From: an uncultured Erythrobacter sp.
GTDB lineage: Bacteria > Pseudomonadota > Alphaproteobacteria > Sphingomonadales > Sphingomonadaceae
Length of the DNA: 64,000 nucleotides
Assembly: GCA_947501215.1 (NCBI GenBank)
Contig: CANMUS010000002.1
Span: 558,001-622,000, forward strand
Direction of reading: 5' to 3'
Part shown: positions 28,679-35,144 of the stretch, piece by piece
How the letters are laid out: each line of letters opens with the position of its first letter
How positions within the stretch are numbered: the stretch's first letter is position 1
Notes under the pieces: generated by a model
Told to the model about the DNA's origin: nothing
What the model saw: the letters and a program-made list of their open reading frames with translations, nothing else
Database searches by the model: none
Position numbers and translations under genes: made by a program

Positions 28679-29083
28679 ATGACCGACGACGACCTGATCG
28701 CAGCTGCGCGCGGCGCTGCCGAGCATTCCTATTCGCCCTATTCGCAATTCGCGGTGGGAGCGGCGCTGCGCTTTGCCAACGGCAGCGTGGTGACCGGAAC
28801 CAATATCGAAAACGCCAGCTATGGCCTGGCGTTGTGCGCGGAGACGGTCGCGGTCTCGAAGGCCATGGCCGATGGGGCTCGCGGCGGGCTGGAAGCGGTC
28901 GCGGTGACCGGCCCCGGCGCCGCGCCGATTACCCCGTGCGGTCGCTGTCGCCAGGTGCTCAACGAATTGGCGCAACTGGGCGGCACCGACCCCGAGATCT
29001 TGTGCGTGGGTCCGGACAGCGTGCGTCGCGTTCGGCTGTCGCAACTGCTGCCCGACGCGTTCGGACCGGCCAGCCTGGTATGA
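28679..29083 (+). CDS. cdd: Cytidine deaminase
   Basis: 134 residues, the length of the tetrameric one-domain enzymes. Converts (deoxy)cytidine to (deoxy)uridine in pyrimidine salvage. Zinc ligands and the proton-shuttling glutamate are in CAETVA at about residue 53-58 and PCGRCRQVL at about 88-96; YSPYSQFAVGAAL and NIENASYGL are substrate-binding segments. An ATG five bases upstream runs into a stop at once, so 28679 is the start. The stop overlaps the next gene by 4 bp. Confidence 0.95.
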   Translation: MTDDDLIAAARGAAEHSYSPYSQFAVGAALRFANGSVVTGTNIENASYGLALCAETVAVSKAMADGARGGLEAVAVTGPGAAPITPCGRCRQVLNELAQLGGTDPEILCVGPDSVRRVRLSQLLPDAFGPASLV

Positions 29084-30099
29084 TCGACCGGCGGCAGGTG
29101 CTCGGCAGCATGGGCGGCGCGCTGCTTGCCACTGCACTGCCTGCCCCAGTGAGCGCCGCCGTCGCACGAAAAGCGCCGCGCTTGCGCGTCGGCGACACGG
29201 TCGGCCTCGTCGCGCCGGCCAGCGCGCTGACGCTGCCGTGGGAACTCGACCGGGCGCAGCACTGGATCAGGGGGATGGGTCTGGTGCCCAAGCTCGGCCA
29301 GCATGTGCGCGAGCAGAACGGGTATCTTGCCGGGACCGACGCGCAGCGGGCCGAGGACTACATGGCGATGGTCGCCGATCCGGACGTGCGCGGCATTTTT
29401 GCCGTGCGTGGCGGCTGGGGCGGGGCGCGTATCCTGCCGCTGCTCGACTGGGATGCCATACGCGCCGATCCCAAGCTGTTGATCGGCTATTCGGATACGA
29501 CCGCGTTGCATCTCGCGATCGCGGCGCGGGCGGGTTTCCCGACGATCCATGGCCCCAATGCCGCCAGCCGGTGGGAGCGGGAAAGCTGGGAAAGCCTGTG
29601 GCGGCTGGCCTTCGCTGCGGACACGCCGGTGCTGGGTGGTGCCCAAGCCGAGCAGGCAAGCGGTCGGGCCGGGCGGACGATCGCCGGTGGCACGGCGAGG
29701 GGCCGCTTGCTCGGCGGAAACCTGACCATCCTCTCGACCCTGATGGGCACGCCGTGTTTGCCCAGCTTCGACGGCGCGGTGCTGTTTCTCGAAGACGTCA
29801 ACGAGGACGTCTATCGCGTTGACCGGATGCTTCAGCAGCTGCGGCTGGCGGGCATACTCGGCAAGCTGTCGGGCATCGCGTTCGGCCAATGCACGAGGTG
29901 CGAACCCGAAACGCAAGAGCAGTCCGGTTTTACGCTCGACGACATTCTCGACCATCATCTCGGTGCGCTCGGCATCCCGGTCTTTACCGGCGCGAATGTC
30001 GGCCACGTCACCAACCAGCTTGCCATGCCGCATGGGGCGCAAGTCGAGCTCGATGCCGATGCGCGTACGCTCCGCCTGCTGGAGCCGGTCGTCGCCTGA
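29080..30099 (+). CDS. LD-carboxypeptidase (peptidase S66), Tat-exported
   Basis: 339 residues. The N-terminus has a twin-arginine signal (DRRQVLG then a hydrophobic stretch ending PVSAAVA at about 30). The S66 core has VGLVAPAS, the serine nucleophile in IGYSDTTAL (about 136), the glutamate in FLEDVNED (about 236) and histidine in VGHVTNQ (about 307). S66 enzymes cut the L,D bond of murein tetrapeptides in recycling; cytosolic ones lack a signal, so this is a periplasmic version. It is coupled to cdd by ATGA overlap, although the two act on unrelated substrates. Confidence 0.93.
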   Translation: MIDRRQVLGSMGGALLATALPAPVSAAVARKAPRLRVGDTVGLVAPASALTLPWELDRAQHWIRGMGLVPKLGQHVREQNGYLAGTDAQRAEDYMAMVADPDVRGIFAVRGGWGGARILPLLDWDAIRADPKLLIGYSDTTALHLAIAARAGFPTIHGPNAASRWERESWESLWRLAFAADTPVLGGAQAEQASGRAGRTIAGGTARGRLLGGNLTILSTLMGTPCLPSFDGAVLFLEDVNEDVYRVDRMLQQLRLAGILGKLSGIAFGQCTRCEPETQEQSGFTLDDILDHHLGALGIPVFTGANVGHVTNQLAMPHGAQVELDADARTLRLLEPVVA

Positions 30100-30154: not shown

Positions 30155-31459
30155 ATGATTTCAACCGCAATTCGCACAGGCGCTATCGGCGCCTGCTCTG
30201 CATTGGCGCTTTGGGCTAGCGTTGCTCAGGCGCAGGAACGGGCCGTGGCTTTCGAAGGCGCGACCATTCATACCATGGCCGGCCCAGCGCTCGACGATGC
30301 CACGTTGGTGGTCGAGGGCGGCAAGATCGTTGCAGTGGGCACCAATGTGGCCGTTCCCCCCGATGCCGAGCGCCGCGATGCGAGCGGCATGGTTATCATG
30401 CCGGGTATTGTCGATACGCACTCGCACATCGGCTCGGTAGCGGGTGCCGACAGCAGCTCGCCGATCCAGCCCGAAGTGCGCGCCATGGATTCGATCAATC
30501 CCCGCGATGCCAGCATCGCCAAGGCACGCTCTGGCGGGGTCACGACGGCCAATGTCATGCCCGGCTCGGGCTGGCTGGTGAGCGGGCAAACCTTCTACAT
30601 GCGCCTGCGCGATGGCGAGACGATCGAGGATATCGCGTGGTTCTTCCCGGACGGTTCGGTGATGGGCGGCTTGAAGATGGCCAACGGCACCAATCCGATC
30701 CGCGAGACGCCCGGTTTCCCGACCACCCGCGCCAAGTCCGCTGCGCTGGTCCGCGCTGCCTTCACCGAGGCAAAAGCCTATTGCGGCGGCGACAAGAAGA
30801 CAGTCGATCTCGGCAAGGAAGTGCTGTGCGAAGTGCTGTCGGGCAAGCGGCTGGTGCATCACCACACGCACCGCGCCGACGACATCATGACCGTGCTGCG
30901 CTTGCAACGCGAGTTCGGTTTCAAGGTGCTGATCCAGCACGGAATGGAAGCCTGGAAGGTCGCCGAGGAACTGGCGGCGGCCGGTATCCCTGTCTCCAAC
31001 ATTCTCGTCGACAGCCCGGGCGGCAAGCTGGAAGCGCAGGAATCGCGGCTCAATACCGCCGCCACGCTGGAGCGGGCCGGCGTGCTGACCTCGCTGCATT
31101 CCGATGACGGCATCATCGATTCGCGCCTCATGTTCCGCCAGGCCGGCATCGCCGTGCGGGGCGGGATGAGCCGAGAGGGCGCGCTGCGGGCGCTCACCAT
31201 CAATGGCGCGAAACAGCTGGGGCTGGACGATCGCGTTGGCAGCCTCGAAGTCGGCAAGGACGCCGATTTCCTCGTGCTCTCTGGCGATCCGCTGTCGGTC
31301 TATACCGATGTAATGGAGACGTGGGTCGAAGGGGAAAAGCTATTCGACCGCACAACCGAGGAAGGCAAGCTGCTGGCCGAAGGCGGCTATGGCGCGGGCA
31401 GCCCGATGGCGCTCTCGCATCACCACTGGGAAGCAGCCGAAGCGGAGACCGGCCAATGA
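30155..31459 (+). CDS. Secreted metal-dependent amidohydrolase
   Basis: 434 residues with a cleavable signal peptide ending ASVAQAQ at about residue 27. The amidohydrolase barrel keeps the metal-binding histidines: VDTHSHIG at about 86-93, HHTHRADD at about 235-242, IQHGMEAW at about 261, and the aspartate in LHSDDG at about 316. A C-terminal VGSLEVGKDADFLVLSGDPL gives the typical second half of the urease-like beta-sandwich. Substrate is unknown; secreted members include dipeptidases/imidazolonepropionase-like enzymes. Overlaps the next gene by 4 bp. Confidence 0.9.
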   Translation: MISTAIRTGAIGACSALALWASVAQAQERAVAFEGATIHTMAGPALDDATLVVEGGKIVAVGTNVAVPPDAERRDASGMVIMPGIVDTHSHIGSVAGADSSSPIQPEVRAMDSINPRDASIAKARSGGVTTANVMPGSGWLVSGQTFYMRLRDGETIEDIAWFFPDGSVMGGLKMANGTNPIRETPGFPTTRAKSAALVRAAFTEAKAYCGGDKKTVDLGKEVLCEVLSGKRLVHHHTHRADDIMTVLRLQREFGFKVLIQHGMEAWKVAEELAAAGIPVSNILVDSPGGKLEAQESRLNTAATLERAGVLTSLHSDDGIIDSRLMFRQAGIAVRGGMSREGALRALTINGAKQLGLDDRVGSLEVGKDADFLVLSGDPLSVYTDVMETWVEGEKLFDRTTEEGKLLAEGGYGAGSPMALSHHHWEAAEAETGQ

Positions 31460-32694
31460 TCAAGCATATCGCCAAATCGCTCGCCGCAGCCGTCCTTGTG
31501 CTGGCCCCCACCCATCTCGCCGCGCAGGATGTCGCCGTGCGCGCCGAAACGCTGCACACCATGGATGGCGCGGCGATCAACGACGGTATCGTCGTGATCC
31601 GCGGCGGCAAGATCGTAAGCGTCGGCCCCGCTGCCAGCACCGGTGTGCCCGAAGGTATGGAAGTGCTGACCGCCAAGGTGGCGACGCCCGGCTTCGTCGA
31701 TGCGCGCACGGTGGTCGGCCTTGCCGGCTATCTCAACCAGTTCGACGACCAGGACCAGCTTGACACGGGCGCTGCGCTCCAACCGCAGCTGCGCGCGATC
31801 GACGGCTATAATCCGGACGAGACGCTGGTCGATTGGGTCCGCTCTTTCGGGGTCACCACCGTCCATACCGGCCACGGGCCCGGCACGGTCGTTTCCGGCC
31901 AGACCATGGTGGCCAAGACATGGGCCAAGACGGCCGATGTGGCGGCGATCGTCCCGCGCGCGATGATCGCAGCCAATCTCGGACCCAATGCGCTCGACAG
32001 CGACAAGGGCCCCGGCACGCGGCCCAAGCAGATGGCGCTGCTCCGCGCCGCGCTGACCGCGGCGCGTGCGGGGCAGGTCCCGGACGAGGCGCAGAAGAGG
32101 CGCGCGCAGGAGGAAGAAAACGACCTCGGCACGATCAAGCTCGATGTCCGCGTCTGGCGGGACGTACTGGCGCGCCGCGTGCCGCTGATGGTCACCGCCA
32201 ACCGTTCGCAGGACATCATGAGCGCGCTGCGCCTCAAGGAAGAGTTCGACATCGATCTGGTCATCGACGGCGGGGCTGAAAGCTATCGCCTGCTCGACCA
32301 GTTGCGCGAGGCCGGGGTCACCGTGATCCTGCACCCGACCATGGGCAGGCACTATGGCGACATGGAGAACGCCAGCTTCACGACCGCTGCCACCCTGCGC
32401 GAAGCGGGCATCCCATTCGCGCTGCAATCCGGCTACGAGGCCTATGTGCCCAAGACCCGCGTCATCTTGTGGGAAGCGGGCTGGGCGGTGGCCAACGGCC
32501 TGGCGCCCCAGCATGCGCTGGCCTCGATCACGATCGACGCGGCGCGTGCCATCGGCGTGGGAGAGCGGGTCGGCTCGCTCACCGTCGGCAAGGATGGCGA
32601 TGTCGTGCTGTTCGATGGAGACCCGCTGGAATACACCAGCCATGTCACCGGCGTCGTGATCGACGGGCGCGTGGCGAGCCGGGAGGTGCGCTGA
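31456..32694 (+). CDS. Secreted amidohydrolase paralogue lacking the metal ligands (probable pseudoenzyme)
   Basis: 412 residues with signal peptide ending THLAAQ at about residue 22. Paralogue of the preceding protein over its whole length, ending with VGSLTVGKDGDVVLFDGDPL. At the four metal positions, however, it reads VDARTVVG (no HxH), MVTANRSQDI (no His pair), VIDGGAESY (His replaced) and LQSGYEA (Asp replaced). It should not bind the usual zinc pair. Coupled translation (ATGA) with the intact paralogue suggests the two form a heteromer in the periplasm, one catalytic and one structural. Confidence 0.85.
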   Translation: MIKHIAKSLAAAVLVLAPTHLAAQDVAVRAETLHTMDGAAINDGIVVIRGGKIVSVGPAASTGVPEGMEVLTAKVATPGFVDARTVVGLAGYLNQFDDQDQLDTGAALQPQLRAIDGYNPDETLVDWVRSFGVTTVHTGHGPGTVVSGQTMVAKTWAKTADVAAIVPRAMIAANLGPNALDSDKGPGTRPKQMALLRAALTAARAGQVPDEAQKRRAQEEENDLGTIKLDVRVWRDVLARRVPLMVTANRSQDIMSALRLKEEFDIDLVIDGGAESYRLLDQLREAGVTVILHPTMGRHYGDMENASFTTAATLREAGIPFALQSGYEAYVPKTRVILWEAGWAVANGLAPQHALASITIDAARAIGVGERVGSLTVGKDGDVVLFDGDPLEYTSHVTGVVIDGRVASREVR

Positions 32695-33396: not shown

Positions 33397-34536
33397 TCAG
33401 CCCTTGTCGCTATCCAGCCATTCGAGCAGGCTGGCAAGGCAGTCGCGCGCCAGCATCTTGCACCGCTCAGGGCTCCATCCCTGCTCGGGCTCGGGGCTGG
33501 CCGGATTGTCCTTGTAAGGCATTTCCAGGGTCATCGCCGTCGCGCCGAAGCGCTCGGCGACCTGATTGGTGCTCATCGACAGATTGGCCTTGCCCGGTGC
33601 CGACTTGGTATAGCCCTGCTCGGTCTGGAAATCGGGCGTGCGCCGGTCGAGAATGCGCTCGTACAGATAAAAGCGTTCACCGTGCTCGTCGGTCCAGCTG
33701 GGGATACCCTCGTATCCGGCGAGGAAGGCGACCGGGATCGCTTCGTCGCCATGCACGTCCATTGCGAAATGCACGCCGGTCTCGTCCATCGCATTGCGGA
33801 TGGCGAGCACTTCGGGGCTCTTTTCCGCAGTCGGATTTTCCCATTCGCGGTTGAGATTGGTGCCCACCGCATTGGTGCGCAGGTGCCCGCGTTTCGATCC
33901 GTCGGGATTGGCATTGGGCACGACATGCAAGCGGCAGCGCTGGCGCAGTAGGCGGCCGACGCTGTCGGTGGGGTCGGTCAGCAATTCGAGCGCGCCTTCC
34001 ATCCACCATTCGGCCTGCGTCTCGCCCGGATGCTGGCGCGCATAGAGCCACACCTGCGTCTCCCCTTCGCCCATCGACAGGCAGTCGATCGGCTGCCCGT
34101 CGAGTGTTGTGCCGAGGCGCTTGTAATGCACGCCCTCGCTAGATGCGGCTTCGGCAACGAGATCGTGGTGACGGTCCATCGAATAGGGCGTGAAATAGGC
34201 GAAATAGGCAATGTCGCTGGCGGGGGTGTAACGGATCGTCAGCGTGCCGTTGTCGGCACTTTCGTCCCAGCTCGATGCCGCACGGCCCCAATAGTCGCGA
34301 TCTTCCGACACGCAGGCATCATATTGCGGCCAGCCGCCGGGATAGGCGCTTTCCTTGAGGCCTGTAATCTTCAGTTCGAGCTCGCGCCCCGCAGCGCCGC
34401 TGACGCGGAAGTGGAACCACTGCGCAAATTCGCTCTGGTGGTCCTTGCGGATAGCCAGCTTGGCACTGGCGCCGTCGACGGACAGGACTTCGATATTGCC
34501 GCTGTCGAATGCGCAATCGATATGGATGTCGTTCAC
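33397..34536 (-). CDS. M14 family zinc carboxypeptidase, bacterial cytosolic-carboxypeptidase (CCP) type
   Basis: 379 residues from a GTG that overlaps the upstream lipoprotein stop (GTGA). An N-terminal beta-sandwich domain (about 1-130) carries the CCP-type WFHFRVSG and PYSMDRH segments. The M14 catalytic domain has [10 protein letters not shown] (zinc ligands His about 168 and Glu about 171), [19 protein letters not shown], the third zinc ligand in DVHGDE (about 256) and the general base in LEMPYKD (about 341). CCPs remove C-terminal acidic residues in eukaryotes; bacterial substrates are mostly unknown. Confidence 0.9.
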
Positions 34537-35144
34537 TCGGGTACCTTCACTTCGATCGTTTCGCCATTGTTGCCGGGAAACTCCCGGAACAGCGCGGAGG
34601 CGACCGTCTGGGCGTTCGCCGTGCCGCGCGCAAGGGGTGAGTCTTCCGGCGGGCTGAAATCCGCACGGCCTTCCCACAAGCTCGCGCCGCTCGCGGCTTC
34701 GCTGATGCGGACCGACAGTTCCGTGCCGAGCCGATCCTTCTCGCCCCCGCCAAGATTGATGCCGATCCCGACGCCCACGCCCGAACCATAATAGCCGCCC
34801 GTTCGCCCGCCGACGCCGACGCTGACGGGGCTGCGGCGGCCGTTCGATCCGATGACGTAACCGTCGACACCGACCTGGGCGATCTGGCTGGCGCTGGCGC
34901 GGTCGGTCTCGACATAGCCGAGCGCGACGAGTTCGCGCGCCACGGCGGCCTTGTAGGGCGCCATGGCCAGGCTGTCGCCATCGGTGCCGGGCATGGTCTC
35001 AACGAAGATGGTACCCTGGCCGAGCCGGGCGGCACTGTCGGGAGCGACGAAGCGGGTCACTTCGACCGGACCCGGCGGTGTCGCACATCCAGCAAGGGCA
35101 AGCGCGGCGCACAGGCCGCTTACGGAGATCATCGGTTTCATCAT
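34533..35144 (-). CDS. DUF4136-type lipoprotein
   Basis: 203 residues. Lipobox LALAGCA with the cysteine at about residue 20. The mature chain fits DUF4136: [29 protein letters not shown] and, near the end, [19 protein letters not shown], with a Gly-rich insertion (about 110-135, [13 protein letters not shown]). Such lipoproteins sit in the outer membrane or periplasm and lack known activity. Translation is coupled with the downstream CCP-type carboxypeptidase. A second in-frame ATG lies three codons later. Confidence 0.82.

What the first reader, a model, noticed from the sequence alone, without database searches (positions are those of the whole stretch)
30155..32694. Tandem catalytic and pseudo amidohydrolase, both secreted and translationally coupled
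The first protein has the complete metal set (HSH, HTH, H, D). The second is a full-length paralogue in which every one of these positions is replaced (DAR, AN, DG, SG), yet signal peptide, barrel framework and C-terminal beta-sandwich are intact. ATGA overlap makes equal amounts of both. An obligatory heterodimer of enzyme and pseudoenzyme in the periplasm would explain conservation of the inactive copy. I know of no named system of this kind, so it is the best candidate in the window for a new functional unit.
Basis: partly seen in the sequence, partly recalled or inferred. Interest (0 to 1): 0.6.

Follow-up and report, generated by a model that had tools for sequence, protein, structure and literature searches.

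The report
Live-plus-dead exported amidohydrolase pair
Two neighbouring genes encode an exported metal-dependent hydrolase and a full-length copy of it with its metal site destroyed, and such live-plus-dead pairs are kept together, and sometimes fused into single proteins, across many bacterial phyla, which suggests that the dead copy is a built-in partner of the working enzyme.

Summary
A1 (30155-31459) has a complete amidohydrolase metal site. B1 (31456-32694) is a full-length paralogue with none of the six ligands, and the genes overlap by ATGA. The unit is ancient and widespread. The same genome has a second, distant live/dead pair with the same overlap. Of 80 named loci found with an A profile, 65 carry a B beside or fused to A, in ten NCBI phyla; 12 are solo A and 3 are cut by contig ends. 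Among domains spanning all six sites, 139 of 141 A-class have six ligands and 144 B-class have two or fewer. In 60 genomes of the genus, A1 and B1 orthologues occur in the same 13. Some planctomycetes fuse A and B; one fused protein models with pTM 0.90. Fifteen triples each hold one live and two dead domains. Best reading: an exported enzyme-pseudoenzyme heteromer that works like M16B peptidases but in the amidohydrolase fold. Complex formation, need for B and substrate are untested. Eight searches of the paper library listed no description.

The parts
30155..31459 (+). A1: catalytic amidohydrolase, 434 aa, exported
   Evidence: Pfam Amidohydro_3 E 5.6e-21 and Amidohydro_1 E 1.4e-19; solved relative 3ooq E 3.9e-61
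30155..30232 (+). A1 leader peptide (about residues 1-26, cleavage near AQA|QE, judged by eye)
   Evidence: Sequence; 38 of 45 unfused paired A rows of L070-L149 that could be anchored have a hydrophobic leader
30419..30427 (+). A1 metal motif H89-S-H91
30674..30676 (+). A1 K174, probably the carbamylated bridging lysine (inferred from the superfamily, recalled)
   Evidence: Invariant in the seven A rows; absent in 148 of 148 B-class domains
30863..30865 (+). A1 H237, metal ligand
30938..30940 (+). A1 H262, metal ligand
   Evidence: absent in 148 of 148 B-class domains
31103..31105 (+). A1 D317, catalytic aspartate
31340..31456 (+). A1 C-terminal tail, longer than in solo A relatives, with GGYGAG; possible tether to B (inferred)
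   Evidence: median 48 residues after the reference motif in 46 rows of L070-L131 (range 13-322, a few mis-anchored; one row is type 2), 28 in the 9 of 12 solo rows that could be measured
31444..31447 (+). GGAG, likely ribosome-binding site of B1 inside A1
   Evidence: Read by eye; 8 nt before the ATG
31456..31459 (+). ATGA overlap of B1 start and A1 stop
   Evidence: a possible B start overlapping the A stop by 4 nt is present in 68 of 98 two-gene entries
31456..32694 (+). B1: exported pseudo-amidohydrolase, 412 aa
   Evidence: model pLDDT 85.2, Z 48.0 to 3ooq
31735..31764 (+). B1 conserved loop NQFDDQDQLD (residues 94-103), conserved in type-1 B
   Evidence: pLDDT block mean 56 at 91-100 in B1 alone, 73 and 66 at 521-540 of the fused model
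32332..32352 (+). B1 conserved loop HPTMGRH (residues 293-299)
   Evidence: block means 61 and 60 in B1 alone, 82 and 90 in the fused model
32437..32460 (+). B1 motif EAYVPKTR (residues 328-335) where A has the loop after the catalytic Asp; E, Y, V, P invariant
   Evidence: Invariant in the 38 type-1 B rows and the 45 fused rows; block means 74 and 68 in B1 alone, 86 and 89 fused

Best explanation
The two genes encode one exported enzyme made of two homologous halves. A1 carries a complete metal site and does the chemistry. B1 is an old, selectively kept dead copy that packs against A1 as its partner and is needed for A1's assembly, stability or substrate handling. Shown by computation: complete versus destroyed metal site, intact B fold, strict co-occurrence in the genus, natural fusions, a confident single-chain model of a fused homologue, joint evolution. 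Inferred: that A1 and B1 form a heterodimer (or a dimer of such), that B1 is required, that the conserved B loops (HPTMxR, ExYVPxxR) face A1 or bind substrate, and that both sit in the periplasm. The substrate is unknown; a small peptide or cyclic amide is my guess, because the sister pair lies beside a POT-type transporter in some genomes and pair 1 lies between two probable peptidase genes.
For: Ligand counts are bimodal: of domains spanning all six sites, 139 of 141 A-class have six; 144 B-class have 0 (84), 1 (56) or 2 (4), and none of 148 B-class has the lysine or the H262 equivalent. A1 and B1 orthologues (E <= 1e-90) are in the same 13 of 60 genus genomes; 47 have neither. Of 80 named loci drawn with an A profile, 65 have B beside or fused to A, 12 are solo A, 3 are cut by contig ends. 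All 16 hit genomes among 200 of the phylum have B next to a live A (in two the A start lay outside the locus). In Bacteroidota 116 of 198 genomes have hits, each with two or more (adjacency not checked). In Acidobacteriota 40 of 80 genomes have hits in 61 clusters, 56 of which hold two or more. A-B fusions occur in 16 loci, and 31 listed matches, L121's own included, span both halves in one ORF under 1100 aa. The fused L121 protein models at pLDDT 89.1 and pTM 0.90, which for two equal domains I take to mean confident relative placement. Mirror trees: r = 0.91 over 57 pairs, 0 of 2000 permutations as high; types agree in 57 of 57. A|B split supported 98 in the quick tree and 100/98 in the careful one. 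B1 dN/dS 0.07-0.19 among four close species. Leaders in 38 of 45 paired A and 48 of 49 B rows.
Against: No biochemical evidence. A relatives occur without a full-length B in 10 of 10 solo genomes checked, and 3ooq was solved as one kind of chain (whether Thermotoga has a B was not checked), so the A fold does not need B in every lineage. Two lone dead domains in Acidobacteriota are not explained by contig ends: G672:C118 has about 1.8 kb upstream without an A (two other hits lie in one ORF on another contig), and G645:C23 stands apart from that genome's other cluster. B distances are on average 1.4 times those of A, and against the more distant L015 B1 dN/dS rises to 0.32-0.49 (A1 0.31-0.37). 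The pLDDT rise of B loops compares different proteins, alignments and block means only. Linked genes give mirror trees by shared descent alone. Neighbourhoods of type-1 pairs are not conserved.
Confidence: 0.73

Rival explanations
1. B is an exported binding protein that captures the substrate (or a cell-wall or peptide ligand) and hands it to A, without a stable A-B complex.
For: Type-1 B has its own conserved loops (DQDQ, HPTMxR, ExYVPxxR); both proteins appear exported.
Against: A-B fusions, three-domain chains, pTM 0.90 for a fused protein and the 4-nt overlaps favour a fixed stoichiometric complex.
Confidence: 0.13
2. B is not dead but has a rebuilt active site with different chemistry.
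For: E328, Y330, V331 and P332 are invariant in 38 type-1 B rows and at the matching places of 45 fused rows; H293 is nearly invariant.
Against: These residues are not shared by type-2 B; no B-class domain has the lysine or the H262 equivalent (0 of 148); at most two of six ligands remain in any of 144.
Confidence: 0.07
3. The heteromer exists, but the dead partner is only a relic of a former homodimer, kept because A now needs a dimer partner to fold (neutral ratchet), with no role in catalysis or substrate choice. Compatible with the best explanation, so the odds overlap.
For: B lies on one side of one branch, evolves faster, and type-2 B is poorly conserved.
Against: Type-1 B keeps strictly conserved loops at the former active-site side in 38 plus 45 rows, more than bare dimerisation would need.
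Confidence: 0.2
4. B1 is a decaying duplicate.
For: One relative (G002) shows one in-frame stop in its B1 match, on a 4-kb contig.
Against: B1 dN/dS 0.07-0.19 among close species, intact fold, presence in 13 of 13 genomes with A1, B domains in ten phyla.
Confidence: 0.01

Closest known systems
M16B metallopeptidases (mitochondrial processing peptidase alpha/beta, Sphingomonas SPH2681/SPH2682, Thermus TTHA1264/TTHA1265)
   Same: A metal-bearing subunit plus a homologous subunit without the metal motif, from separate (in the Thermus case neighbouring) genes; in M16A/C the two halves are one chain (passages of PMC12731061, and PMC11266112). Same separate-versus-fused pattern as here.
   Different: Other fold (clam shell) and metal motif HxxEH; here the fold is the amidohydrolase barrel with a beta-sandwich.
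PDB 3ooq, amidohydrolase of Thermotoga maritima
   Same: Closest solved relative by sequence of both A1 (E 3.9e-61) and B1 (E 4.3e-36); whole-domain match Z 52.9 for the A half of a fusion and 48.0 for B1.
   Different: Ten chains of one sequence, no dead partner in the entry; no function named; no paper found under its code.
Catalytically dead paralogues that activate an enzyme (trypanosome AdoMetDC prozyme, trypanosome deoxyhypusine synthase)
   Same: Dead paralogue as activating partner in a heteromer (abstract starts of PMC5201418 and PMC3663545).
   Different: Other enzyme families, in trypanosomatids; not an exported bacterial gene pair.
Pseudo-dihydroorotase of Pseudomonas ATCase, and CRMP/DPYSL proteins (recalled, not from a call)
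   Same: Inactive members of the amidohydrolase superfamily that act in complexes.
   Different: Partner is another enzyme (ATCase) or the proteins are neuronal; not an exported live/dead pair of one subfamily.

Membership tests
Amidohydrolase superfamily (Pfam Amidohydro_1/Amidohydro_3) | Profile match above the curated cut-off | tested here: met
   A1: 71 and 76 bits; B1: 43.1 and 32.7 bits; cut-offs 25 and 29.7
Amidohydrolase superfamily (Pfam Amidohydro_1/Amidohydro_3) | Barrel plus sandwich fold | tested here: met
   B1 model Z 48.0, 372 residues, rmsd 2.0 to 3ooq; A half of the L121 fusion Z 52.9, 382 residues. A1 itself was not modelled
Catalytic amidohydrolase (A1) | HxH, Lys, His, His, Asp metal set | tested here: met
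   All six present in A1
Catalytic amidohydrolase (B1) | HxH, Lys, His, His, Asp metal set | tested here: not met
   None of the six in B1
Xaa-Pro dipeptidase / imidazolonepropionase / other NCBIfam equivalogs | Score above the curated cut-off of an equivalog model | tested here: not met
   A1 76.3 bits against cut-off 500 and 59.3 against 298; B1 49.5 against 298; none of the 25 and 24 models shown reaches its cut-off; 47 weaker A1 matches are not shown
Enzyme-pseudoenzyme heteromer (M16B-like way of working) | Live and dead homologues encoded together | tested here: met
   13 of 13 genomes with either gene hold both in the genus; 16 of 16 hit genomes in the phylum sample; two unexplained lone dead domains in 40 Acidobacteriota genomes
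Enzyme-pseudoenzyme heteromer (M16B-like way of working) | Fused single-chain form in some lineages | tested here: met
   16 fused A-B loci, 31 spanning matches, four three-domain chains read (L187, L191, L192, L199)
Enzyme-pseudoenzyme heteromer (M16B-like way of working) | Physical complex in which the dead subunit is needed for activity | not testable with these tools
   Only indirect: pTM 0.90 for a fused homologue
M16 peptidase family | HxxEH motif and M16 fold | not tested
   Named only as a way of working; no M16 profile among the Pfam matches listed for A1 or B1, and the fold matched is amidohydrolase

The most novel reading that the evidence does not exclude
An undescribed, ancient class of exported amidohydrolase complexes built on a fixed recipe of one live plus one or two dead domains, in which the dead domain's rebuilt loop after the lost catalytic Asp (ExYVPxxR) and its HPTMxR loop reach over to complete or gate the partner's active site. 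It arose once by duplication of a leaderless solo enzyme and is now carried as two genes, three genes or fused chains in at least ten phyla.
Probability: 0.4. Interest if true: 0.78.

Novelty: new variant of a known kind. Interest (0 to 1): 0.64.

Why it matters
If true, many proteins now annotated simply as amidohydrolase are inactive halves of heteromeric enzymes, which would mislead functional transfer and single-gene expression. It would give the amidohydrolase superfamily its own counterpart of the M16B heterodimers, with separate, fused, double-dead and solo forms as a natural experiment on how enzymes come to depend on dead copies. The open question of why pseudoenzymes are conserved becomes directly testable by a two-gene expression experiment.

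Tried and rejected
Conserved neighbours as a clue to substrate: 50 flanking ORFs from 20 loci (ORFs picked mechanically, not by a gene caller) gave no shared family; no family was found in more than 2 of the 50 (25 of 88 families shown, most frequent first). Pair 1 lies between a probable S66 LD-carboxypeptidase and a probable M14 peptidase in the window and three close relatives (L213-L215) but not in L216 or L217; pair 2 has a POT-type transporter within the stretch read in the window genome and in 6 of 15 other type-2 loci (L200-L212, L218, L219). The S66, M14 and POT names are mine, from motifs seen in the translations, and were not tested by a profile search.

B alone: five single hits in Acidobacteriota were listed and four were fetched. 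G655:C2 and G659:C210 are dead domains within 0.9 kb of a contig end. G672:C118 is a B-class domain with about 1.8 kb upstream free of A; that genome's two other hits lie in one 1065-aa ORF on C159, which I did not read. G645:C23 is a lone dead domain in a genome with another cluster of two on C27. G635:C44 is a partial hit, not fetched. G672 and G645 remain as possible separated members.

A mixed alignment of fused chains with separate A and B rows apparently placed the B rows on the A half and was dropped. The VIA list for the fused model tests mainly the A half; the absence of separate B-half rows means nothing. An alternative metal site in B was considered: H137, H140 and H293 are each replaced in some type-1 B rows. 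A second origin of B was considered and is not supported, but the trees are unrooted.

Rows dropped or odd: L133_Bf1 (branch 2.64) was in the quick tree but left out of the careful tree; L113 (two pairs) was paired by hand. One search left out 4 N-truncated A rows and duplicate loci but counted L054 and L065, one locus, twice; removes L065 and sets aside 5 A and 2 B rows that do not span all six sites. The two A-class exceptions are dead L190 domains that score nearly alike on both profiles. Neither count includes L150-L179 or L200-L219. In one search the 'type 2' group holds L056 and L057, which are type 1, and the 'type 1' group holds a type-2 row of L113. In one search, 3 loci are counted twice (L009/L040, L010/L056, L012/L070), all with the overlap, so 65 of 95 without them; 17 of the other 30 entries have a possible start within 2 bases of the A stop, the remaining 13 lie further off or have none near; GTG and TTG starts were accepted. 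Paper searches matched 371 and 781 papers, of which 20 and 15 were listed.
Full report
OBSERVATION. A1 is 30155-31459 and B1 is 31456-32694 on the + strand, with ATGA at 31456-31459. A1 carries H89, H91, K174, H237, H262 and D317. B1 has none of them at the aligned positions. Both match Pfam amidohydrolase profiles above cut-off. None of the NCBIfam cut-offs shown is reached by either. The closest solved protein for both by sequence is 3ooq of Thermotoga maritima. B1 models well (pLDDT 85.2) and matches 3ooq over 372 residues at Z 48.0, so the framework is intact.

A SECOND PAIR IN THE SAME GENOME. G000:C2 holds another live/dead pair about 220 kb away (L009 5003-7755, minus strand). A2 looks like a lipoprotein (by eye) with the full metal set, B2 has lost it, and the two genes again overlap by ATGA. 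A1 and A2 are about 35% identical, B1 and B2 about 31%.

HOW FAR IT GOES. In 60 relatives plus the own genome, 56 of 61 matched B1 at 1e-5. Of the 31 loci read from these (L009-L039), 30 show the dead gene beside a live one; the other, L014, is a short contig cut before A. Among 200 genomes of the phylum, 16 had a B-profile match and all 16 showed B adjacent to a live A, two of them with the A start outside the locus. 49 of the 80 hold A and B as separate genes (some of them within triples), 16 as one chain, 12 hold a solo A, and 3 are cut by a contig end. By NCBI phylum the 49 are Planctomycetota 10, Pseudomonadota 9, Bacteroidota 9, Balneolota 6, Acidobacteriota 5, Verrucomicrobiota 3, Gemmatimonadota 3, Chlorobiota, Rhodothermota and Krumholzibacteriota 1 each, and 1 unassigned; the 16 fused are all Planctomycetota; the 12 solo are Actinomycetota 11 and Myxococcota 1. 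Among domain rows that span all six sites, 139 of 141 A-class rows have six ligands and the 144 B-class rows have 0, 1 or 2 (84, 56, 4). None of 148 B-class rows has the lysine or the equivalent of H262.

CO-OCCURRENCE. In the genus (60 genomes), A1 orthologues at 1e-90 occur in 13 and B1 orthologues in the same 13; 47 have neither. The unit is gained and lost as a whole. In 198 Bacteroidota genomes, 116 have hits and every one has at least two; adjacency was not checked there. In 80 Acidobacteriota genomes, 40 have hits forming 61 clusters: 37 of two, 18 of three, one of six and five singles. Two singles lie within 0.9 kb of a contig end, one is a partial hit not followed, and two (G672, G645) may be truly separated dead domains. 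In contrast, ten genomes with a solo A have one full-length A-type protein and no B; one of them has a further partial hit.

FUSIONS AND TRIPLES. In 16 planctomycete loci the two are one chain, live half first, dead half second, with roughly 30-60 residues between the matched domains. Other planctomycete loci keep two genes. A survey of 148 genomes of the class of L121 found matches in 120; 31 listed matches span both halves in one ORF below 1100 aa, and 37 listed matches span both halves in ORFs of 1372-1721 aa (the list was cut by the tool). Of the longer kind I read three. Twenty stretches were fetched. Fifteen hold a triple (L180-L189, L191-L194, L199), and each triple has one live and two dead domains, as three genes, as two genes, or as one chain of 1419-1684 aa (some first domains were matched in two pieces). 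L190 has six domains in a row, alternating live and dead, the last two fused.

STRUCTURE. A fused protein (L121, 869 residues, 45 fused rows) gave mean pLDDT 89.1 and pTM 0.90. For two halves of equal size I would expect a clearly lower pTM if their mutual placement were unsure (general knowledge), so I read it as a confident A-B arrangement. I had no coordinates and name no contact. Three loops conserved in type-1 B had low confidence when B1 was modelled alone: block means 56 at 91-100, 61 and 60 at 291-310, 74 and 68 at 321-340. The matching blocks of the fused model have 73 and 66, 82 and 90, 86 and 89. This hints that the HPTMxR and ExYVPxxR loops become ordered by A, but the alignments and proteins differ, so it is weak.

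EVOLUTION. A quick tree of 122 domains puts all 63 A on one side and all 59 B on the other (support 98). A careful tree of 64 domains without the longest branch gives 100/98 for the A side, 100/99 for type-1 B and 100/100 for type-2 B with the B of the triples. The A and B parts of the quick tree mirror each other: r = 0.91 over 57 pairs, 0.85 within type 1, 0.83 within type 2, none of 2000 permutations as high; type by A equals type by B in 57 of 57. If the root lies at the solo A proteins (assumed), B arose once, after the solo lineage split off and before types 1 and 2 parted. Shared descent alone also yields mirror trees for linked genes, so this shows joint inheritance rather than contact. 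B1 is under purifying selection: dN/dS 0.07-0.19 among four close species, against 0.04-0.15 for A1; 0.32-0.49 and 0.31-0.37 with the more distant L015, where dS is 0.7-1.0.

EXPORT AND TAIL. Of the unfused rows of L070-L149 that could be anchored, 38 of 45 paired A and 48 of 49 B have a hydrophobic leader by a simple hydropathy rule. Of 12 solo A rows three pass that rule, but by eye 10 of 12 have a Met within about 13 residues of the domain and the other two (L138, L146) show no hydrophobic leader. Paired A also carry a C-terminal extension, with GGxGAG in many type-1 rows and SDFELG in most type-2 rows shown, that the nine measured solo A lack. Duplication, export and a new tail thus appear to go together.

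COUPLING. 68 of 98 two-gene entries have a possible B start overlapping the A stop by 4 nt (65 of 95 without double-counted loci), and 17 of the other 30 have one within 2 bases.

FUNCTION. The substrate is open. Probable S66 and M14 peptidase genes beside pair 1 (window and three relatives, not two others) and a POT-type transporter near pair 2 (window genome and 6 of 15 other type-2 loci) point weakly to peptides.

KNOWN OR NEW. The nearest way of working is the M16B peptidases (passages of PMC12731061, and PMC11266112), where live and dead halves are separate or fused. The fold is different, so this is not a member. Eight paper searches listed no description of a live/dead pair of amidohydrolases; two of them were capped lists and the library lacks most subscription journals, so absence is not proven. 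Of the papers I saw search listings only, apart from passages of those two reviews.

Noticed in passing
L009:5003-7755 (G000:C2, about 365-368 kb), outside the window: Second live/dead pair (A2 lipoprotein-like, B2 dead) with the same ATGA overlap, beside a POT-type transporter gene.
   Followed up: yes
L190:670-8367: Six amidohydrolase domains in a row, alternating live and dead, the last two fused in one 835-aa ORF.
   Followed up: partly
L180-L189, L191-L194, L199: Triple version: one live and two dead domains as three genes, two genes or one chain of 1419-1684 aa; the extra dead domain is very divergent.
   Followed up: partly
L121 C-terminus; tails of A in L078, L083, L085: A Cys-Cys motif (GGxGxGCCLG) ends the fused planctomycete consensus, and a similar CC motif lies near the end of some unfused type-1 A proteins, as if the A tail motif had moved to the end of the fusion.
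   Followed up: no
L014 (G002:C48): B1 orthologue with an in-frame stop or frame break on a 4-kb contig, its A1 lying cut on another contig; assembly fault or decay not decided.
   Followed up: no
29077-30099 and 33397-34677: Pair 1 is flanked by a probable LD-carboxypeptidase (S66) upstream and a probable M14 carboxypeptidase (minus strand) downstream; the order is kept in three close relatives, not in two others.
   Followed up: partly
L134-L139, L141, L142, L146-L149: Solo A relatives without a hydrophobic leader, with a shorter C-terminus and, in the ten genomes searched, without any full-length B: a natural control for the pair.
   Followed up: partly
G672:C118 (L195) and G645:C23 (L196): Dead domains standing apart from a live A in Acidobacteriota genomes; could be real separations or assembly effects.
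   Followed up: partly
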